A stretch of DNA of 64,000 bases from Pyruvatibacter mobilis (GTDB lineage: Bacteria > Pseudomonadota > Alphaproteobacteria > CGMCC-115125), in assembly GCF_012848855.1 (NCBI RefSeq), contig NZ_CP051630.1:537501-601500 (forward strand), given 5' to 3'. The notes beneath the pieces were generated by a model. It searched no databases. It saw only the letters and a list, made by a program, of their open reading frames with translations, and had not been told where the DNA came from. Positions 5,278 to 61,484 of the stretch are shown in pieces; the stretch's first letter is position 1, and the number at the start of each line of letters is the position of its first letter. A program made the translations under genes and the position numbers.

Positions 5278-6300
5278 CTAGCAGATTGCGCGGGCCTGGG
5301 CGGCGGGCACGAGCGTGATCTCGGCGGAGAGGACAGCCAGGGCGTCCGCGCCGCTTTCATCCGGACAGGATTCCGGAATGACTGAGAAGGCAAGGCCGTC
5401 AGCGGAGGCCGGGGTGATCCGGTTCGCGGGTGCATCATCCTCGCGCTGCTGCCAGGAGCCCGTGGCGAGGCGGGCGACGGCATCGCGGAAGGCGCCGTCG
5501 AAGCGGATCGCGGTGTTGGGGAACATGCGCGGGTGCCACGGGTCGCCGACCTTGTGGACGATGCCGTTCAGCTCCGTGGTGTTGAGGGCGACGATGTGGC
5601 GCTCGCCGCCGAGCAGCAGCACCAGCGGCCCGCCGGACCAGCCGGGGATCATGTCGCAATCATGGTTGAACTCGCCGGGGGAGAAATAGCCGTGGTGCCA
5701 GTGGCGCTTGGGCACGGGGCCGCAGCGCTCGGAAATCATCATGCGCGGGCGTTCGCCGTTCTTGCCGATGAGCACATAGCGGCCGCCGGCGCGGGTGACG
5801 GGGGCAAGGTCCTGCGGGGTGAGCGTGCGGAGCGGCAGGGCGCCGAACTCGGTGGACGGGGTGCCGGCAATGGCGGCGACGGCCCAGTCATGGTGCCAGG
5901 CCTTGCCCGGCTCCAGGGTGCCCAGGGCAATGTGGACGACATCACGGGCCTCGCTGTCGAGACCGCCCGGCAGGAAGGCGCAGCGGGCCTCCATTGAATT
6001 ATGCCGCCCCCGGAATGCGTGTGCGACGGTCACCACGAGATCGTAGTCGCGGTTTTCGGGGAGGCGGGGATGCTGGATGAGGGTGCCGATGGGGCGGCGG
6101 GACGATCCGTCGCAGACAATCTGGCCCACGGCGGCGAAACCGTCTTCGGCGGTCAGGGGGCGCCGGTCGTCCTTATCGAACACATTCGCCGCGAGGGGCA
6201 GGGGGGCAGCCGCTGTCAGGGCCAGGGCGCAGGCCGCCTTCCGGCAAAGACCATGTCTTGCTGAAAAGAAGGAACTCAGCGTGCTGAGTATTGCCGCCAA
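5278..6300 (-). CDS. secreted trypsin-like serine peptidase (S1 fold)
   Basis: A 340-residue protein with an N-terminal signal sequence (hydrophobic KAACALALTAAAPLPLAANV, residues 21-40). A chymotrypsin-like triad can be placed: His94 in TVAHAF, Asp138 in HDWAVAAI and Ser222 in IPGWSGGPLVLL. The residue before the nucleophile is Trp instead of the usual Asp or Asn, which may alter the oxyanion or activation pocket. Several cysteines (63, 107, 193, 215) could form disulfides, consistent with periplasmic or extracellular location. It stands alone; the acyl-CoA synthetase start is 175 bases beyond its stop. Substrate and biological role are unknown. Confidence 0.8.
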   Translation of the reverse strand: MAAILSTLSSFFSARHGLCRKAACALALTAAAPLPLAANVFDKDDRRPLTAEDGFAAVGQIVCDGSSRRPIGTLIQHPRLPENRDYDLVVTVAHAFRGRHNSMEARCAFLPGGLDSEARDVVHIALGTLEPGKAWHHDWAVAAIAGTPSTEFGALPLRTLTPQDLAPVTRAGGRYVLIGKNGERPRMMISERCGPVPKRHWHHGYFSPGEFNHDCDMIPGWSGGPLVLLLGGERHIVALNTTELNGIVHKVGDPWHPRMFPNTAIRFDGAFRDAVARLATGSWQQREDDAPANRITPASADGLAFSVIPESCPDESGADALAVLSAEITLVPAAQARAIC

Positions 6301-6412
6301 TTACCACCTCCGCCGAACCCTGACACCTTGATAAGACAGGCAGACGGGAAAAGTCTGTCACGGAGCCCGGTGTGGCGCAAGAATGGTTGGGGGTTTGATT
6401 TGTTTCAAGTAT

Positions 6413-6631
6413 TCACGATCCGATGATCTTCTTCTTTTCTGCTGCCGCTGCTTCCAGAGACTCGATGTGCGACATCAAACTCGAAAACTCTTCATCACCA
6501 AAAACATGCTGAATGGTTGCGAGTTTAATGCACAGGTCTTGAATGCTTTTTTCAAAAGCTGCAAAATTCTTCAGAAGAGTTTTATCGATAGACTTTTTTG
6601 TCTCGTCGCTCTGACCCTTGTTCGCGTTCAT
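6413..6631 (-). CDS. small hypothetical protein, low-GC ORF
   Basis: A 72-residue hydrophilic, mostly helical protein (MNANKGQSDETKKSIDKTLL at its start, SLEAAAAEKKKIIG near its end). It has no motif or membrane segment that I recognise. Third codon positions are AT-rich, very unlike the surrounding genes, and the whole patch 6300-6960 is low in GC, suggesting acquired DNA. Start chosen at the ATG at 6631. A GTG at 6643 in the same frame would add four residues, and neither has a well-spaced ribosome site, so expression is uncertain. The coherent amphipathic composition argues for a real protein. A dense array of palindromes lies upstream at 6718-6928. Confidence 0.45.
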   Translation of the reverse strand: MNANKGQSDETKKSIDKTLLKNFAAFEKSIQDLCIKLATIQHVFGDEEFSSLMSHIESLEAAAAEKKKIIGS

Positions 6632-6717
6632 CCTTACTGACACCCTGACTGTTTGGTAGACTTACTTACTGTAAAATCGAATAGATTCTTGTTTTACTTG
6701 GGTTTTGCATAAAGTTT

Positions 6718-6747
6718 GCCGCGGATCACTTTCTGTGACGCCGCGGC
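6718..6747. repeat. strong hairpin upstream of the small low-GC ORF
   Basis: GCCGCGG (6718-6724) pairs with CCGCGGC (6741-6747), and inside it TCAC (6726-6729) pairs with GTGA (6735-6738) around a TTTCT loop. This is an 11-pair stem with a small asymmetric internal loop. No T-tract follows on either strand, so it is more likely a regulatory or RNA structure than a terminator. Confidence 0.6.
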
Positions 6748-6844
6748 TGGCTTGTTCATCGCAGTTTGACTGTGCTTTTGAAGCTAGGCGAAATCCGTGT
6801 GCAGATCAATTCGCAACCTTAGTGCGGTTTGGTCCACGAGTCAT

Positions 6845-6928
6845 GCAACCCATGGTTAACGGTTGCGCAAGTCCGGACCTGTTCAAAATGAACAGCGGAT
6901 AAATCCGCACAATATTGCGGAATATTCC
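6845..6928. promoter_or_regulatory. cluster of five consecutive dyad symmetries
   Basis: Read directly: GCAACC-N10-GGTTGC (6845-6866), GTCCGGAC (6871-6878), CTGTTC-N5-GAACAG (6879-6895), GCGGAT-AA-ATCCGC (6895-6908) and GGAATATTCC (6919-6928). Every arm is a perfect match. The first dyad encloses ATGGTTAA (TTAACCAT on the other strand), which resembles a CtrA half-site. The function is not known; operator array, recombination site or protein-binding locus are all possible. Confidence 0.55.
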
Positions 6929-7014
6929 CGTGTAAAAATTCCAAGACAAATCAGTGAATCCGCACATGCGGGTCTTGCATGGCAGCCTTGCTGCGCTGTG
7001 GACAGGCGTCCAGC

Positions 7015-7047
7015 AAAAAGGCGGCCGCGAAATGCCGCGGCCGCCTT
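7015..7047 (-). terminator. rho-independent terminator of the diiron gene
   Basis: AAGGCGGCCGCG (7018-7029) and CGCGGCCGCCTT (7036-7047) form a perfect 12-pair stem with a 6-base loop. On the minus strand it is followed by TTTTT, 60 bases past the stop codon at 7107. Confidence 0.9.
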
Positions 7048-7106
7048 GAGGTTTGTCAGGATGCGGACAGGACCGAAGGGCCCGTCCGCAGGTGCGTATG
7101 CGGTGA

Positions 7107-8243
7107 TTACTCTGCGGCTACTGTGGCGCCCGGCGACGTGAACTTGCCGCCATTGATGCCGAGCAGGAACTTGATTCCGTCTTCGGCGATGTCGTCGCCG
7201 ACCATGCGGTCGCCTTCGGCATGCAGTTCCTTGATGTTGACGAAGGTCGCGTAGTTGCTGGCGGTGCGGTCGGTGATGATGCCGGCGTTGAGCAGGGTCT
7301 TGATCAGAACACGGAAGATGTTTTCCTGCTCCTTCATGTCCTCCTGGATGTTCTCATCCGTCATGGCTTCCATGAAGGCGCTCTGCACCCATTCCCAGTC
7401 GAGGCCGAGCTGGTCGTAGATGTGCTTTTTCTGCTCCGGCGAGCCGAGATTGTAGAGCAGGACCTGGAAGACCTCCCACGCCCAGTCCTCGATCTGGTCG
7501 CGCTCGGCGGCGGGCACGTTGGGCACCGTGCGGTCGGCCCAGATCTTGCCGAATTTATGGTGAAAGGCTTCGTCGGTCATGGTGAGCTGCATGAGCTTGA
7601 CCAGCAGCGGATCACGCCCCCAGCGATACATGGAGGCGAAGGCACCCATGGCCAGGCCTTCCACCATCATCTGCATGCCGACGATCTTCTTCCACACCAG
7701 CGGCGAGTTGACGAGCTCGATCAGCAGGTTGCGCAGGGCGGGGCCGCAAGGCACGGGCTTGCCCCAGCGGGCCTTGATGTAGTTGGAGAAGCCGGTGACG
7801 TGGCGGGCTTCCTCACGGGTCTGGTTGGCGGCGTATTCCTGCGCACCCGGGTCCTTGAGGATGTGGCAGAGGGAGGCGGAGAGCGCCAGCGCGCCTGCCT
7901 CGCCGTGGAGGATGGAGGACAGGCTCCACTGGGTGTTGAGGTTCACCAGCTTGATCTTCTGCGCTTCATCCAGCTTGTCGCCGATGGCCGTGCGCAGCTC
8001 GATGCTCTGATCCGGGTCGACCAGATAGTCCTTGTCGAGATCAAACGGCGCGGAGAAGTCGATATAGCGGGTGTCCATCGGGTCCCAGAAATGATCGTGG
8101 GTTGCCGAAATGATCTTGTCGAAGGCGTCCGACCGGCTGCCATAGCTGTCGACTTCGATCATCGCGCCGAAATCGTCCGGCGCCACGGCCTCGTAGGCCG
8201 GATCGACGGTGAAGCTTTTCTGGTCGTTGGTTGGCTGGCTCAT
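7107..8243 (-). CDS. ferritin-like diiron-carboxylate protein (putative oxygenase)
   Basis: A 378-residue soluble helical protein with the full ligand set of a diiron-carboxylate enzyme: Glu115 (HGEAGA), Glu145-xx-His148 (EEARH), Glu195 (VEGLA) and Glu225-xx-His228 (DEAFHH). The spacing fits the ferritin/ribonucleotide-reductase-like fold shared by acyl-ACP desaturases, AurF-type N-oxygenases and related oxidases. The exact reaction cannot be assigned. Start set at the ATG at 8243 because AGGAGG lies 6 bases upstream; the open frame extends further but that part is not protein-like. It is single-gene, ends in a strong terminator, and sits downstream of the HPt-like/receiver operon. Confidence 0.8.
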   Translation of the reverse strand: MSQPTNDQKSFTVDPAYEAVAPDDFGAMIEVDSYGSRSDAFDKIISATHDHFWDPMDTRYIDFSAPFDLDKDYLVDPDQSIELRTAIGDKLDEAQKIKLVNLNTQWSLSSILHGEAGALALSASLCHILKDPGAQEYAANQTREEARHVTGFSNYIKARWGKPVPCGPALRNLLIELVNSPLVWKKIVGMQMMVEGLAMGAFASMYRWGRDPLLVKLMQLTMTDEAFHHKFGKIWADRTVPNVPAAERDQIEDWAWEVFQVLLYNLGSPEQKKHIYDQLGLDWEWVQSAFMEAMTDENIQEDMKEQENIFRVLIKTLLNAGIITDRTASNYATFVNIKELHAEGDRMVGDDIAEDGIKFLLGINGGKFTSPGATVAAE

Positions 8244-8419
8244 GCCGTTTCCTCCTGAGCTCGCACGGCCAGGGGAGGCGTGAGGGTGCACGCCTGCTTC
8301 AGGCCGCAAGGGGCGCGGGCGGCGGCTTTTGTGCCGCTCTGTCACCACGCATGGCGGAAGCTTAGTGGGCGCGGGCAGATTTGTGAAGAAGATGACGAGG
8401 GCGTCATTTTCGGTGGCGG

Positions 8420-14726: not shown

Positions 14727-15431
14727 TCAGGCGGGCACGTCCGCCAGCAGGATTTCGGCCGCTTCACCGTCCGCTGCGGTGATCGTGATCTCCGCCACGT
14801 CCCGTATGGCAGCCCCGGCACGCGCCGGGACGACATCACCATTGACCGTGACAGCGCCGCTGGCCGGGACGAGATAGGCGTAGCGGCCTTCGCCGAGGCT
14901 GTGGGTCACGGTCTGGCCCGGCGCAAGCGTTGCCCCGAACACGGCCGCATCAGCCCGGATGGGCAGGGCAGTGTCGTGGCCCTGGCCGGAGGCAAGCGCC
15001 ACCAGCTGGCCGGACCGGTCATCCCTGGGGAAGGCCGCCTGGTCCCAGCGCGGAGTGCCGCCCGGTTTTTCCGGCGCGATCCAGATCTGGAAGATGCGCG
15101 TGTGCGCCTCCTCGCGATTGTGCTCAGCATGCATGATGCCCTTGCCGGCAGACATCACCTGCACGTCGCCGGCCTCGGTGCGGCCCTCATTGCCCAGATG
15201 GTCCTGGTGGCTGATGGCGCCCTCGCGGACATAGGTGATGATCTCCATGTCCCGGTGGCCATGCATGTCGAAGCCCGTGTGGGGATCGATGGTGTCGTCG
15301 TTCCAGACCAGCAGGCTGCCCCAGCCATTGCGGCCCACATGGCGGTGGGGGCCGAAATTGAAGTGGTGATAGGCATCAAGCCAGGGCAGGCGGGTGTGGG
15401 GATGATCGTCGAAATGGCGGATATCGACCAT
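14727..15431 (-). CDS. pirin family protein (YhhW-like bicupin)
   Basis: A 234-residue bicupin. The N-terminal cupin carries the metal-ligand set His57, His59 (DMHGHRD), His101 and Glu103 (IMHAEHN), the same positions as in YhhW-type pirins, which can act as quercetin dioxygenases. The usual PHRHVGRNGWGSLLVWNDD opening is present. The natural substrate in bacteria is normally unknown. Start set at the ATG at 15431 because AGGAGG precedes it by 6 bases; the reading frame continues 660 bases upstream but that part is not pirin-like. It is convergent with the acidic protein gene and its terminator. Confidence 0.92.
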   Translation of the reverse strand: MVDIRHFDDHPHTRLPWLDAYHHFNFGPHRHVGRNGWGSLLVWNDDTIDPHTGFDMHGHRDMEIITYVREGAISHQDHLGNEGRTEAGDVQVMSAGKGIMHAEHNREEAHTRIFQIWIAPEKPGGTPRWDQAAFPRDDRSGQLVALASGQGHDTALPIRADAAVFGATLAPGQTVTHSLGEGRYAYLVPASGAVTVNGDVVPARAGAAIRDVAEITITAADGEAAEILLADVPA

Positions 15432-59353: not shown

Positions 59354-61270
59354 CTATTTCGCGCCCTCGTGGAAGTGATCGTAGATGCTGCGGGCGACAG
59401 CGGTTGAAATGCCTTCCACGGCTTCAAGGTCGGCGAGGCCTGCCGCGGCGACGGCGCGGGCAGAGCCGAAATGGTTAAGCAATGCGCGCTTGCGCTTGGG
59501 GCCGATGGAGGCGATCCCGTCCAGCAGCGACTTGCCCATGGCCTTCTTGCGCCGGGTGCGGTGGCTGCCGATGGCAAAGCGGTGGGCTTCATCGCGCAGG
59601 CGCTGGAGATAATAGAGCACGGGGCTTTTCGGCTCCATCATGAAGGGCTGGCGGCCGGTCATGAAGAAGCGCTCACGGCCCGCGTCACGCTCAGGGCCCT
59701 TGGCGATGCCCACCAGCGTTACCCGGTCGATGCCCAGTTCGTTGAACACCTCCTGGACGACGGAAAGCTGCCCGGCGCCGCCGTCGATCAGCACGAGGTC
59801 TGGCCAGTCGGGGACGGGCAGATCAGCGCGGGCCTCATCCTCAGCGGTATCAAGGGCTTCCTGCTCCTTCACCAGGCGGGCGAAGCGGCGGGTCAGTACC
59901 TCGCGCATCATGGCGTAGTCATCGCCGGGCTCGGTGTCCGGGTTCTTGATGTTGAACTTGCGGTACTGGTTCTTGCGGAAGCCTTCAGGCCCCGCGACGA
60001 TCATGCCGCCGACAGCATTGGTGCCGGAGATGTGACTGTTGTCATAGACCTCGATGCGCTCGGGCGCCGTGTCCATGCCGAAAGCCTCGGCGAGGCCCGC
60101 CAGCAGTTTCGTCTGGGTCGAGCTTTCAGCCATGCGGCGGGCTAGGGCCTCGCGGGCATTGTCGAAGGCGTACTGCACCAGCTCGCGCTTTTCGCCCCGG
60201 TGCGGACGGCCGACGGCCACCTTGCGGCCGCGCTTGACGGTCAGCGCTTCGGCCAGCAGGTCGCCATTTTCGATGTCCTGATTGAGCAGCACGAGGCGCG
60301 GGGCCGGGCGTTCCTCGTAGAACTGGGCGAGGAAGCCATCGAGGATTTCGGCCGGTTCCATGTCCTTGTCGTGCTTGGGGAAGTAGGCGCGGTTGCCCCA
60401 GTTCTGCCCGGCGCGGAAGAAGAAGACCTGCACACAGGCCTGGCCGCCTTCGGCGTGGATGGCGAAGACATCCGCCTCTTCGACGGTCTGCGGGTTGATG
60501 CCCTGGCGCTGCTGGATGTGGCTCAGGGCGCGCAGGCGGTCGCGGTAGATGGCGGCCTTCTCGAAATCCAGCTCGCCTGCGGCTGTTTCCATCTGGGCGG
60601 CCATCCGTTCACGGATCTTGCGGCTCTTGCCGGTGAGGAAGGCGTCGGCTTCCGCCACAAGGCTTGCGTAATCATCATGACTGATTTCGCCGGTGCAGGG
60701 GGCGGAGCAGCGCTTGATCTGGAACAGCAGGCAGGGGCGGGTGCGGGCGTCATAGACCGTGTCGGAGCACGAGCGCAGCAGGAAGGCCTTCTGCAGGGCG
60801 TTCAGCGTGCGGTTGACCGCGCCGGCCGAGGCGAAGGGGCCGAAATAGTCGCCCTTGCGGCTGCGCGCGCCGCGATGCTTGAGGATCTGCGGCACCTCGT
60901 GGTCGCGGGCGATGAGGATATAGGGGAAGGACTTGTCGTCGCGCAGCTGCACATTGTAGCGCGGGCGCAGCTGCTTGATGAGGTTGGCTTCGAGCAGCAG
61001 GGCCGCCGTCTCGCTTTCCGTCACCACGAATTCCATGGCGCGGGTGGCGGCGATCATCCGCGCGATGCGGTTGGTGTGGCCCATGAGGCGGGTGTAGCTG
61101 GTGACGCGCTTCTTGAGGTTGCGCGCCTTGCCCACATAGAGCACCTCGCCATCCTCGCCGAACATGCGGTAGACGCCCGGCGCGTGGGGCAGCCGGGTGA
61201 CGTAATCCGCGATCAGGTCCGCGCCGATGAGGGGGGTGTCAGCGGATGGAGGAGGAGGGGCGTCGCTCAT
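59354..61270 (-). CDS. uvrC: excinuclease ABC subunit C
   Basis: A 638-residue UvrC of nucleotide excision repair. N-terminal GIY-YIG nuclease domain ([29 protein letters not shown], about 31-59), a Cys-rich region, the UVR motif ([16 protein letters not shown]), the RNase-H-like C-terminal nuclease ([31 protein letters not shown]) and helix-hairpin-helix repeats at the end ([22 protein letters not shown]). Its upstream region has a DnaA-box match and several palindromes. Confidence 0.97.
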
Positions 61271-61476: not shown

Positions 61477-61484
61477 TTAACCAT
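61477..61484 (+). promoter_or_regulatory. CtrA half-site-like TTAACCAT
   Basis: TTAACCAT is the half-site form seen in CtrA-controlled promoters of Caulobacter and relatives. It is one short match in an AT-richer stretch and could be chance. Confidence 0.3.

What the first reader, a model, noticed from the sequence alone, without database searches (positions are those of the whole stretch)
6718..6928. Palindrome-dense low-GC patch beside an orphan small ORF
Six perfect dyads or hairpins lie within 211 bases (6718-6747, 6845-6866, 6871-6878, 6879-6895, 6895-6908, 6919-6928), five of them nearly end to end. The surroundings are much lower in GC than the genome and hold one 72-residue protein of foreign codon use. 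This packing is not typical of an ordinary promoter. It could be a multi-operator control region, a recombination or partition site, or the remains of an acquired element.
Basis: seen in the sequence. Interest (0 to 1): 0.62.

Follow-up and report, generated by a model that had tools for sequence, protein, structure and literature searches.

The report
Palindrome-rich leader of orphan gene
A stretch unusually rich in short DNA palindromes sits in front of a small protein gene found so far only in this bacterial genus; it looks like that gene's control region, but the palindromes themselves are not shared by related species, so it is mostly ordinary.

Summary
The dyads are real and exceed shuffles of the patch. 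Their intergenic region has the strongest short-loop dyad excess of 121 scored in 464 kb of this genome. GC is low (0.48; sample 0.635). Recent acquisition fails: the order AurF-like gene, terminator hairpin, low-GC leader, small ORF, trypsin-like gene occurs in 4 of 4 held genus genomes, and the ORF shows purifying selection. Four more distant loci have the flanking genes 103-216 bp apart without the ORF, so ORF plus leader is a genus-level gain or a loss elsewhere. No second copy, no Rfam match, little sign of a repeated motif; RNA folding, terminator excluded, ranks only 17 and 23 of 107. Best reading: promoter and leader of a genus-specific orphan small gene, with species-specific dyads. 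One known element recurs: a CtrA half-site-like TTAACC[A/T]T on the sense strand in 4 of 4 leaders, noticed after looking.

The parts
6413..6643 (-). Genus-restricted orphan small ORF, 76 aa from GTG (72 aa from the in-frame ATG at 6629-6631); predicted two-helix hairpin
6644..7014 (-). Low-GC leader and presumed promoter region of the small ORF (GC 0.48)
6718..6747 (.). Hairpin with 7-bp arms GCCGCGG/CCGCGGC and an inner stem after a bulge
   Evidence: 6712-6753 folds with z -4.6 on +, -5.0 on - strand
6845..6866 (.). Dyad, 6-bp arms, 10-nt spacer; contains TTAACCAT
6852..6859 (-). TTAACCAT, matches the CtrA half-site; TTAACC[AT]T is on the sense strand of all four leaders
6863..6870 (.). Perfect palindrome TTGCGCAA
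6871..6878 (.). Perfect palindrome GTCCGGAC
6879..6895 (.). Perfect dyad CTGTTCA-3 nt-TGAACAG
6895..6908 (.). Perfect dyad GCGGAT-2 nt-ATCCGC
6904..6921 (.). Perfect dyad TCCGCA-6 nt-TGCGGA
6919..6928 (.). Perfect palindrome GGAATATTCC
6960..7012 (.). Further short dyads at 6960-6971, 6982-6994, 6999-7012
6909..6936 (-). Only sigma-70-like promoter match in 6290-7130 (TTTACA-16-TATTGT); not above chance (1 found, 0.6 expected)
7018..7047 (-). Terminator-like hairpin after the upstream AurF-like gene (12-bp arms, T-run on the - strand)
7107..8393 (-). Upstream neighbour, AurF-like gene (Pfam match below the curated cut-off)
5278..6300 (-). Downstream neighbour, trypsin-like (Trypsin_2) gene (Pfam match just below the curated cut-off)

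Best explanation
The patch is the intergenic leader and promoter region, on the - strand, of a small gene (6413-6643) known only from this genus, which lies between two conserved genes. Shown: gene order, terminator hairpin, low GC and ORF are shared by the four held genus genomes; the ORF is under purifying selection between the two closest congeners; the dyad excess is real but seen only in this species. Inferred: transcription starts inside the dyad cluster and runs leftwards into the small ORF; the dyads act, if at all, as DNA binding sites for dimeric regulators rather than as RNA hairpins (several have no loop, and folding of 6838-6935 is modest, z about -2.6). Speculative: CtrA, the alphaproteobacterial cell-cycle and motility regulator, binds the TTAACCAT site at 6859-6852 and controls the small two-helix protein.
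For: Same gene order and low-GC leader in 3 of 3 congeners; AurF-like gene 84-91% identical in them; 22 invariant columns in 4 small-ORF sequences; dN 0.043, dS 0.528 (NG86; 0.053 and 0.304 by YN00) between the two closest congeners, the other pairs saturated. A hairpin with 10- to 12-bp arms and T-run ahead of the leader in all four. Dyad excess by shuffles and background. TTAACC[AT]T on the sense strand in 4 of 4 leaders, chance 1.3-2.3% each; three TTAACCAT in the window against 0.17 expected; the best 30-base block shared with the L007 leader lies at this site (7 of 100 shuffles as good); a CtrA-family match at 427.8 bits, cut-off 350, in this genome.
Against: No dyad excess in 3 of 3 congeners. 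The only promoter-like match is no better than chance, and the scans of L007 and L005 show none that lies at a matching place. The terminator scan did not list the L005 hairpin. The CtrA half-site was picked after looking; TTAACCTT in two congeners is one base off and these two are close relatives; three-way leader blocks are no better than shuffles; no TTAA-N7-TTAA site in this leader; one of the three window copies of TTAACCAT lies in a gene (59471); the 10-mer GTTAACCATG is enriched in this genome (9 v 3 control) but not in the congeners (2 v 2, 2 v 1, 1 v 2); genes beside four other TTAACCAT sites, judged by eye, show no cell-cycle theme. No expression data.
Confidence: 0.6

Rival explanations
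1. The dyads have no function: they are a chance or mutational product (for example template switching that perfects inverted repeats) in a weakly constrained AT-rich spacer of this species.
For: No dyad excess in 3 of 3 congeners; little sign of a repeated motif; weak significance under some dyad definitions; coding stretches reach the same raw coverage; the patch was picked by eye.
Against: 1st of 121 intergenic regions for short-loop dyads, z 4.4 against 3.3 for the next other region; 0 of 1000 shuffles as high for that class.
Confidence: 0.3
2. A structured RNA (small RNA or regulatory 5' leader) is encoded in 6644-7014.
For: The segment folds better than shuffles: z -4.0 on the - strand, -2.9 on the + strand; the hairpin stretch 6712-6753 has z about -5. 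With its terminator included the region ranks 3rd and 6th of 107 for folding.
Against: Without the terminator it ranks only 17 and 23 of 107 (20 shuffles each; the others keep whatever terminators they hold); no Rfam family at gathering score in the window and only far-below-threshold hits here; congener leaders fold with z -2.3 to -0.3; several dyads have no loop and cannot form as written in RNA.
Confidence: 0.08
3. A remnant of an acquired element, gained in the ancestor of the genus between the AurF-like and trypsin-like genes.
For: Four loci outside the genus (L011, L045, L027, L028) have the trypsin-like gene opening 216, 215, 103 and 104 bp after the AurF-like stop (657-737 bp in the congeners), and no small ORF; small-ORF GC3 0.43-0.55 in the genus; a profile finds it in 4 of 385 class genomes, all of the genus.
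Against: No plasmid or phage relative; none of five neighbouring proteins scanned looks mobile, though mobile genes and target-site repeats were not searched systematically; low GC alone does not show foreign origin, and loss elsewhere is possible. In six further loci the two genes lie 1.5-2.0 kb apart.
Confidence: 0.15
4. A partition, replication or recombination site.
For: Cluster of palindromes in a low-GC stretch.
Against: No clear iteron-like repeats, single copy, no ParB-site match in the window, no dyad conservation.
Confidence: 0.02

Closest known systems
Promoter/leader region of a lineage-specific (orphan) small gene (recalled category)
   Same: AT-rich leader after the terminator of the upstream gene; small ORF found only in one genus and under purifying selection
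   Different: Unusual density of short dyads, seen only in this species
CtrA-controlled promoters of Alphaproteobacteria (half-site TTAACCAT, full site TTAA-N7-TTAAC; passages of PMC3692519 seen)
   Same: Exact half-site in this leader and in one congener; CtrA-family gene present
   Different: No full site here; two congeners carry TTAACCTT; no binding or expression evidence
REP/MITE-type palindromic repeats (recalled)
   Same: Short palindromes in an intergenic region
   Different: Single copy in the genome

Membership tests
CtrA regulon promoter | CtrA orthologue in the genome | tested here: met
   427.8 bits against a 350-bit cut-off; over the cut-off in 3 of 4 genus genomes, not in the 81%-complete draft G002
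CtrA regulon promoter | TTAA-N7-TTAA full site or TTAACCAT half-site upstream | tested here: inconclusive
   Half-site exact in 2 of 4 leaders, one mismatch in the other 2; no full site in this leader
CtrA regulon promoter | CtrA binding and CtrA-dependent expression | not testable with these tools
   needs ChIP or EMSA and expression data
Multi-operator region of one regulator | Several copies of one operator | tested here: not met
   Best repeated word not above shuffles at 5% in 9 of 10 settings; one setting 3%
REP/MITE palindromic element | Many copies in the genome | tested here: not met
   Only self at E below 0.03 in four genomes
Structured non-coding RNA of a known family | Rfam match at gathering score | tested here: not met
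   0 matches in the window
Recently acquired element | Absent from close relatives at the same site | tested here: not met
   Present at the same place in 4 of 4 genus genomes
parS partition site | ParB-site consensus (recalled) | tested here: not met
   0 matches in the window with up to 3 mismatches

The most novel reading that the evidence does not exclude
A species-specific array of unlike, abutting palindromes forms a compact multi-regulator switch around a CtrA-type site and controls a genus-specific two-helix protein of unknown function: an example of rapid rewiring of the cell-cycle/motility circuit onto an orphan gene.
Probability: 0.07. Interest if true: 0.45.

Novelty: new member of a known kind. 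Interest (0 to 1): 0.2.

Why it matters
The small gene is a genus-specific orphan with evidence of selection and with four outgroup loci where its place is empty, useful for studying how such genes and their promoters arise. The palindrome cluster itself would matter only if shown to bind regulators.

Tried and rejected
Tried without result: Pfam, NCBIfam and PHROGs scans of the small protein (best: PHROG of unknown function, E 0.0088, in 1 of 4 members; Pfam Med28 0.016 and NCBIfam PRK14065 0.052, each in 1 of 4; taken as chance); Foldseek of its model (mean pLDDT 76.5, pTM 0.48, 4-row alignment) against PDB, best E 1.4 (two-helix hairpins such as EsxB); plasmid and phage tblastn; conserved three-way blocks among leaders; repeated half-sites; the CTGTTCA dyad as a genome-wide motif. 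The genome-contig scan with the trypsin-like protein found no relative, although tblastn later found homologues in loci fetched with the AurF-like gene, so that scan was insensitive. Gene calls for the background were a simple GC-by-codon-position rule, so some intergenic limits are rough. Dropped rows: of 125 intergenic regions of 150 bases or more, 4 with N or over 800 bases were left out (121 kept, plus the trimmed patch); those over 480 bases were left out (106 kept, plus the trimmed patch). One search looked at 22 of the 80 loci; one search measured the gap between the two flanking genes in 13 loci (3 congeners, 10 others); L031 could not be used because it is masked there.

Full report
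What was checked. The window lies in a 3.33-Mb single-contig genome with three held congeners. One record that matches congener G002's contig in length and match position is titled 'Candidatus Phaeomarinobacter sp.' (L007), so this is an alphaproteobacterium of that genus or its GTDB equivalent. The six dyads were read directly and listed mechanically. They are there, and the cluster extends further right than reported, to about 7012.

Is it more than chance? Against 1000 dinucleotide shuffles of 6718-6928, short-loop dyad coverage (arms of 4 or more, loops of 4 or less) is 106 against 37.5 +- 18.0, none as high; other definitions are reached by 0.1 to 21 percent of shuffles. Because the patch was picked by eye, I compared it with other places. 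Within the window it gives a peak that is 1st to 4th in each of 18 measures. In a 464-kb sample (the window plus 20 stretches of 20 kb) a number of coding stretches and a few noncoding ones have equal or higher raw coverage. Among 121 intergenic regions scored against 100 of their own shuffles, the region 6644-7106 ranks 1st for short-loop dyads (z 4.4; trimmed patch 4.9; next other region 3.3) and 4th for a looser definition.

What is there. The segment lies between a terminator-like hairpin (7018-7047) that follows an AurF-like gene (7107-8393, - strand) and a small ORF on the same strand (6413-6643), followed by a trypsin-like gene (5278-6300). The three congeners have the same order: AurF-like gene 84-91% identical, a hairpin with 10- or 11-bp arms and a T-run (the scan listed the one of L007, not that of L005), a low-GC leader of 343, 236 and 234 bases (GC 0.37-0.43; here 370 bases and 0.48), the small ORF and the trypsin-like gene. 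The small protein has 22 invariant columns in four sequences; between the two closest congeners dN is 0.043 and dS 0.528 by NG86 (0.053 and 0.304 by YN00), the other pairs being saturated, so it is a real, selected gene. Its GC3 is low in all four (0.43-0.55). A profile finds it in 4 of 385 class genomes, all of the genus, and in none of the loci from other genera among the 100 then held. In four loci outside the genus (L011, L045, L027, L028) the trypsin-like gene opens 216, 215, 103 and 104 bp after the AurF-like stop, against 657-737 bp in the congeners; in six others it lies 1.5-2.0 kb away. The ORF is thus a genus-level gain or a loss elsewhere, not a recent insertion in this species. Its model is a two-helix hairpin of middling confidence without a significant structural match.

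Conservation of the dyads. None of the three congener leaders shows a dyad excess (short-loop coverage reached by 33-91 percent of shuffles), and the individual dyads are not among those listed in them. No second strain of the species was held.

Mechanism. RNA: the leader folds better than shuffles, but so do many other intergenic regions: without its terminator it ranks 17 and 23 of 107, with it 3 and 6; there is no Rfam family. Several dyads lack a loop, which suits DNA-binding dimers better than RNA (inference). Little sign of a common half-site, the block is single-copy, and the longest perfect dyad is not over-represented in this genome (12 v 12), though its pattern exceeds the control in the congeners. 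One candidate regulator site stands out: TTAACCAT, described as the CtrA half-site (passages of PMC3692519), lies on the sense strand inside the dyad 6845-6866 and recurs exactly in the L007 leader, while the other two leaders have TTAACCTT. Chance for TTAACC[AT]T on the sense strand is 1.3-2.3 percent per leader, but the motif was chosen after looking, and the last two leaders come from close relatives. The genome has a CtrA-family protein over the curated cut-off, and TTAACCAT is commoner than chance in the window (3 v 0.17, one of them inside a gene). Against it: no full site here, three-way blocks no better than shuffles, enrichment of the longer word in this genome only, and no clear theme, by eye, in the genes beside other copies.

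Verdict. An ordinary kind of object, the control region of an orphan small gene, with a statistically real but species-specific crowding of palindromes whose function is unproved.

Noticed in passing
window 6413-6643: Genus-restricted orphan small protein (72-76 aa), predicted two-helix hairpin, best conserved in its C-terminal half; found in 4 of 385 class genomes, all in the genus.
   Followed up: partly
window 6852-6859, 59471-59478, 61477-61484: TTAACCAT occurs three times in the window against 0.17 expected (the one at 59471 is inside a gene); in noncoding sequence of the 464-kb sample it is listed 2nd of 385 words of the same composition, tied with the 1st at 5 copies.
   Followed up: partly
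window 14949-15180: A second stretch as rich in short-loop dyads as the patch, but coding by the simple gene rule.
   Followed up: no
L119 3265-3556: Intergenic region with the strongest RNA-folding excess of those tested (z about -12 on both strands with 20 shuffles).
   Followed up: no
L114 13406-14133: Lowest-GC intergenic region of the sample (0.481 over 728 bases by the simple gene rule).
   Followed up: no
L011, L045, L027, L028 and L008-L010, L013, L014, L016: The AurF-like and trypsin-like genes are neighbours outside the genus too: 103-216 bp apart in four loci and 1.5-2.0 kb apart in six, which suggests a conserved pair.
   Followed up: partly
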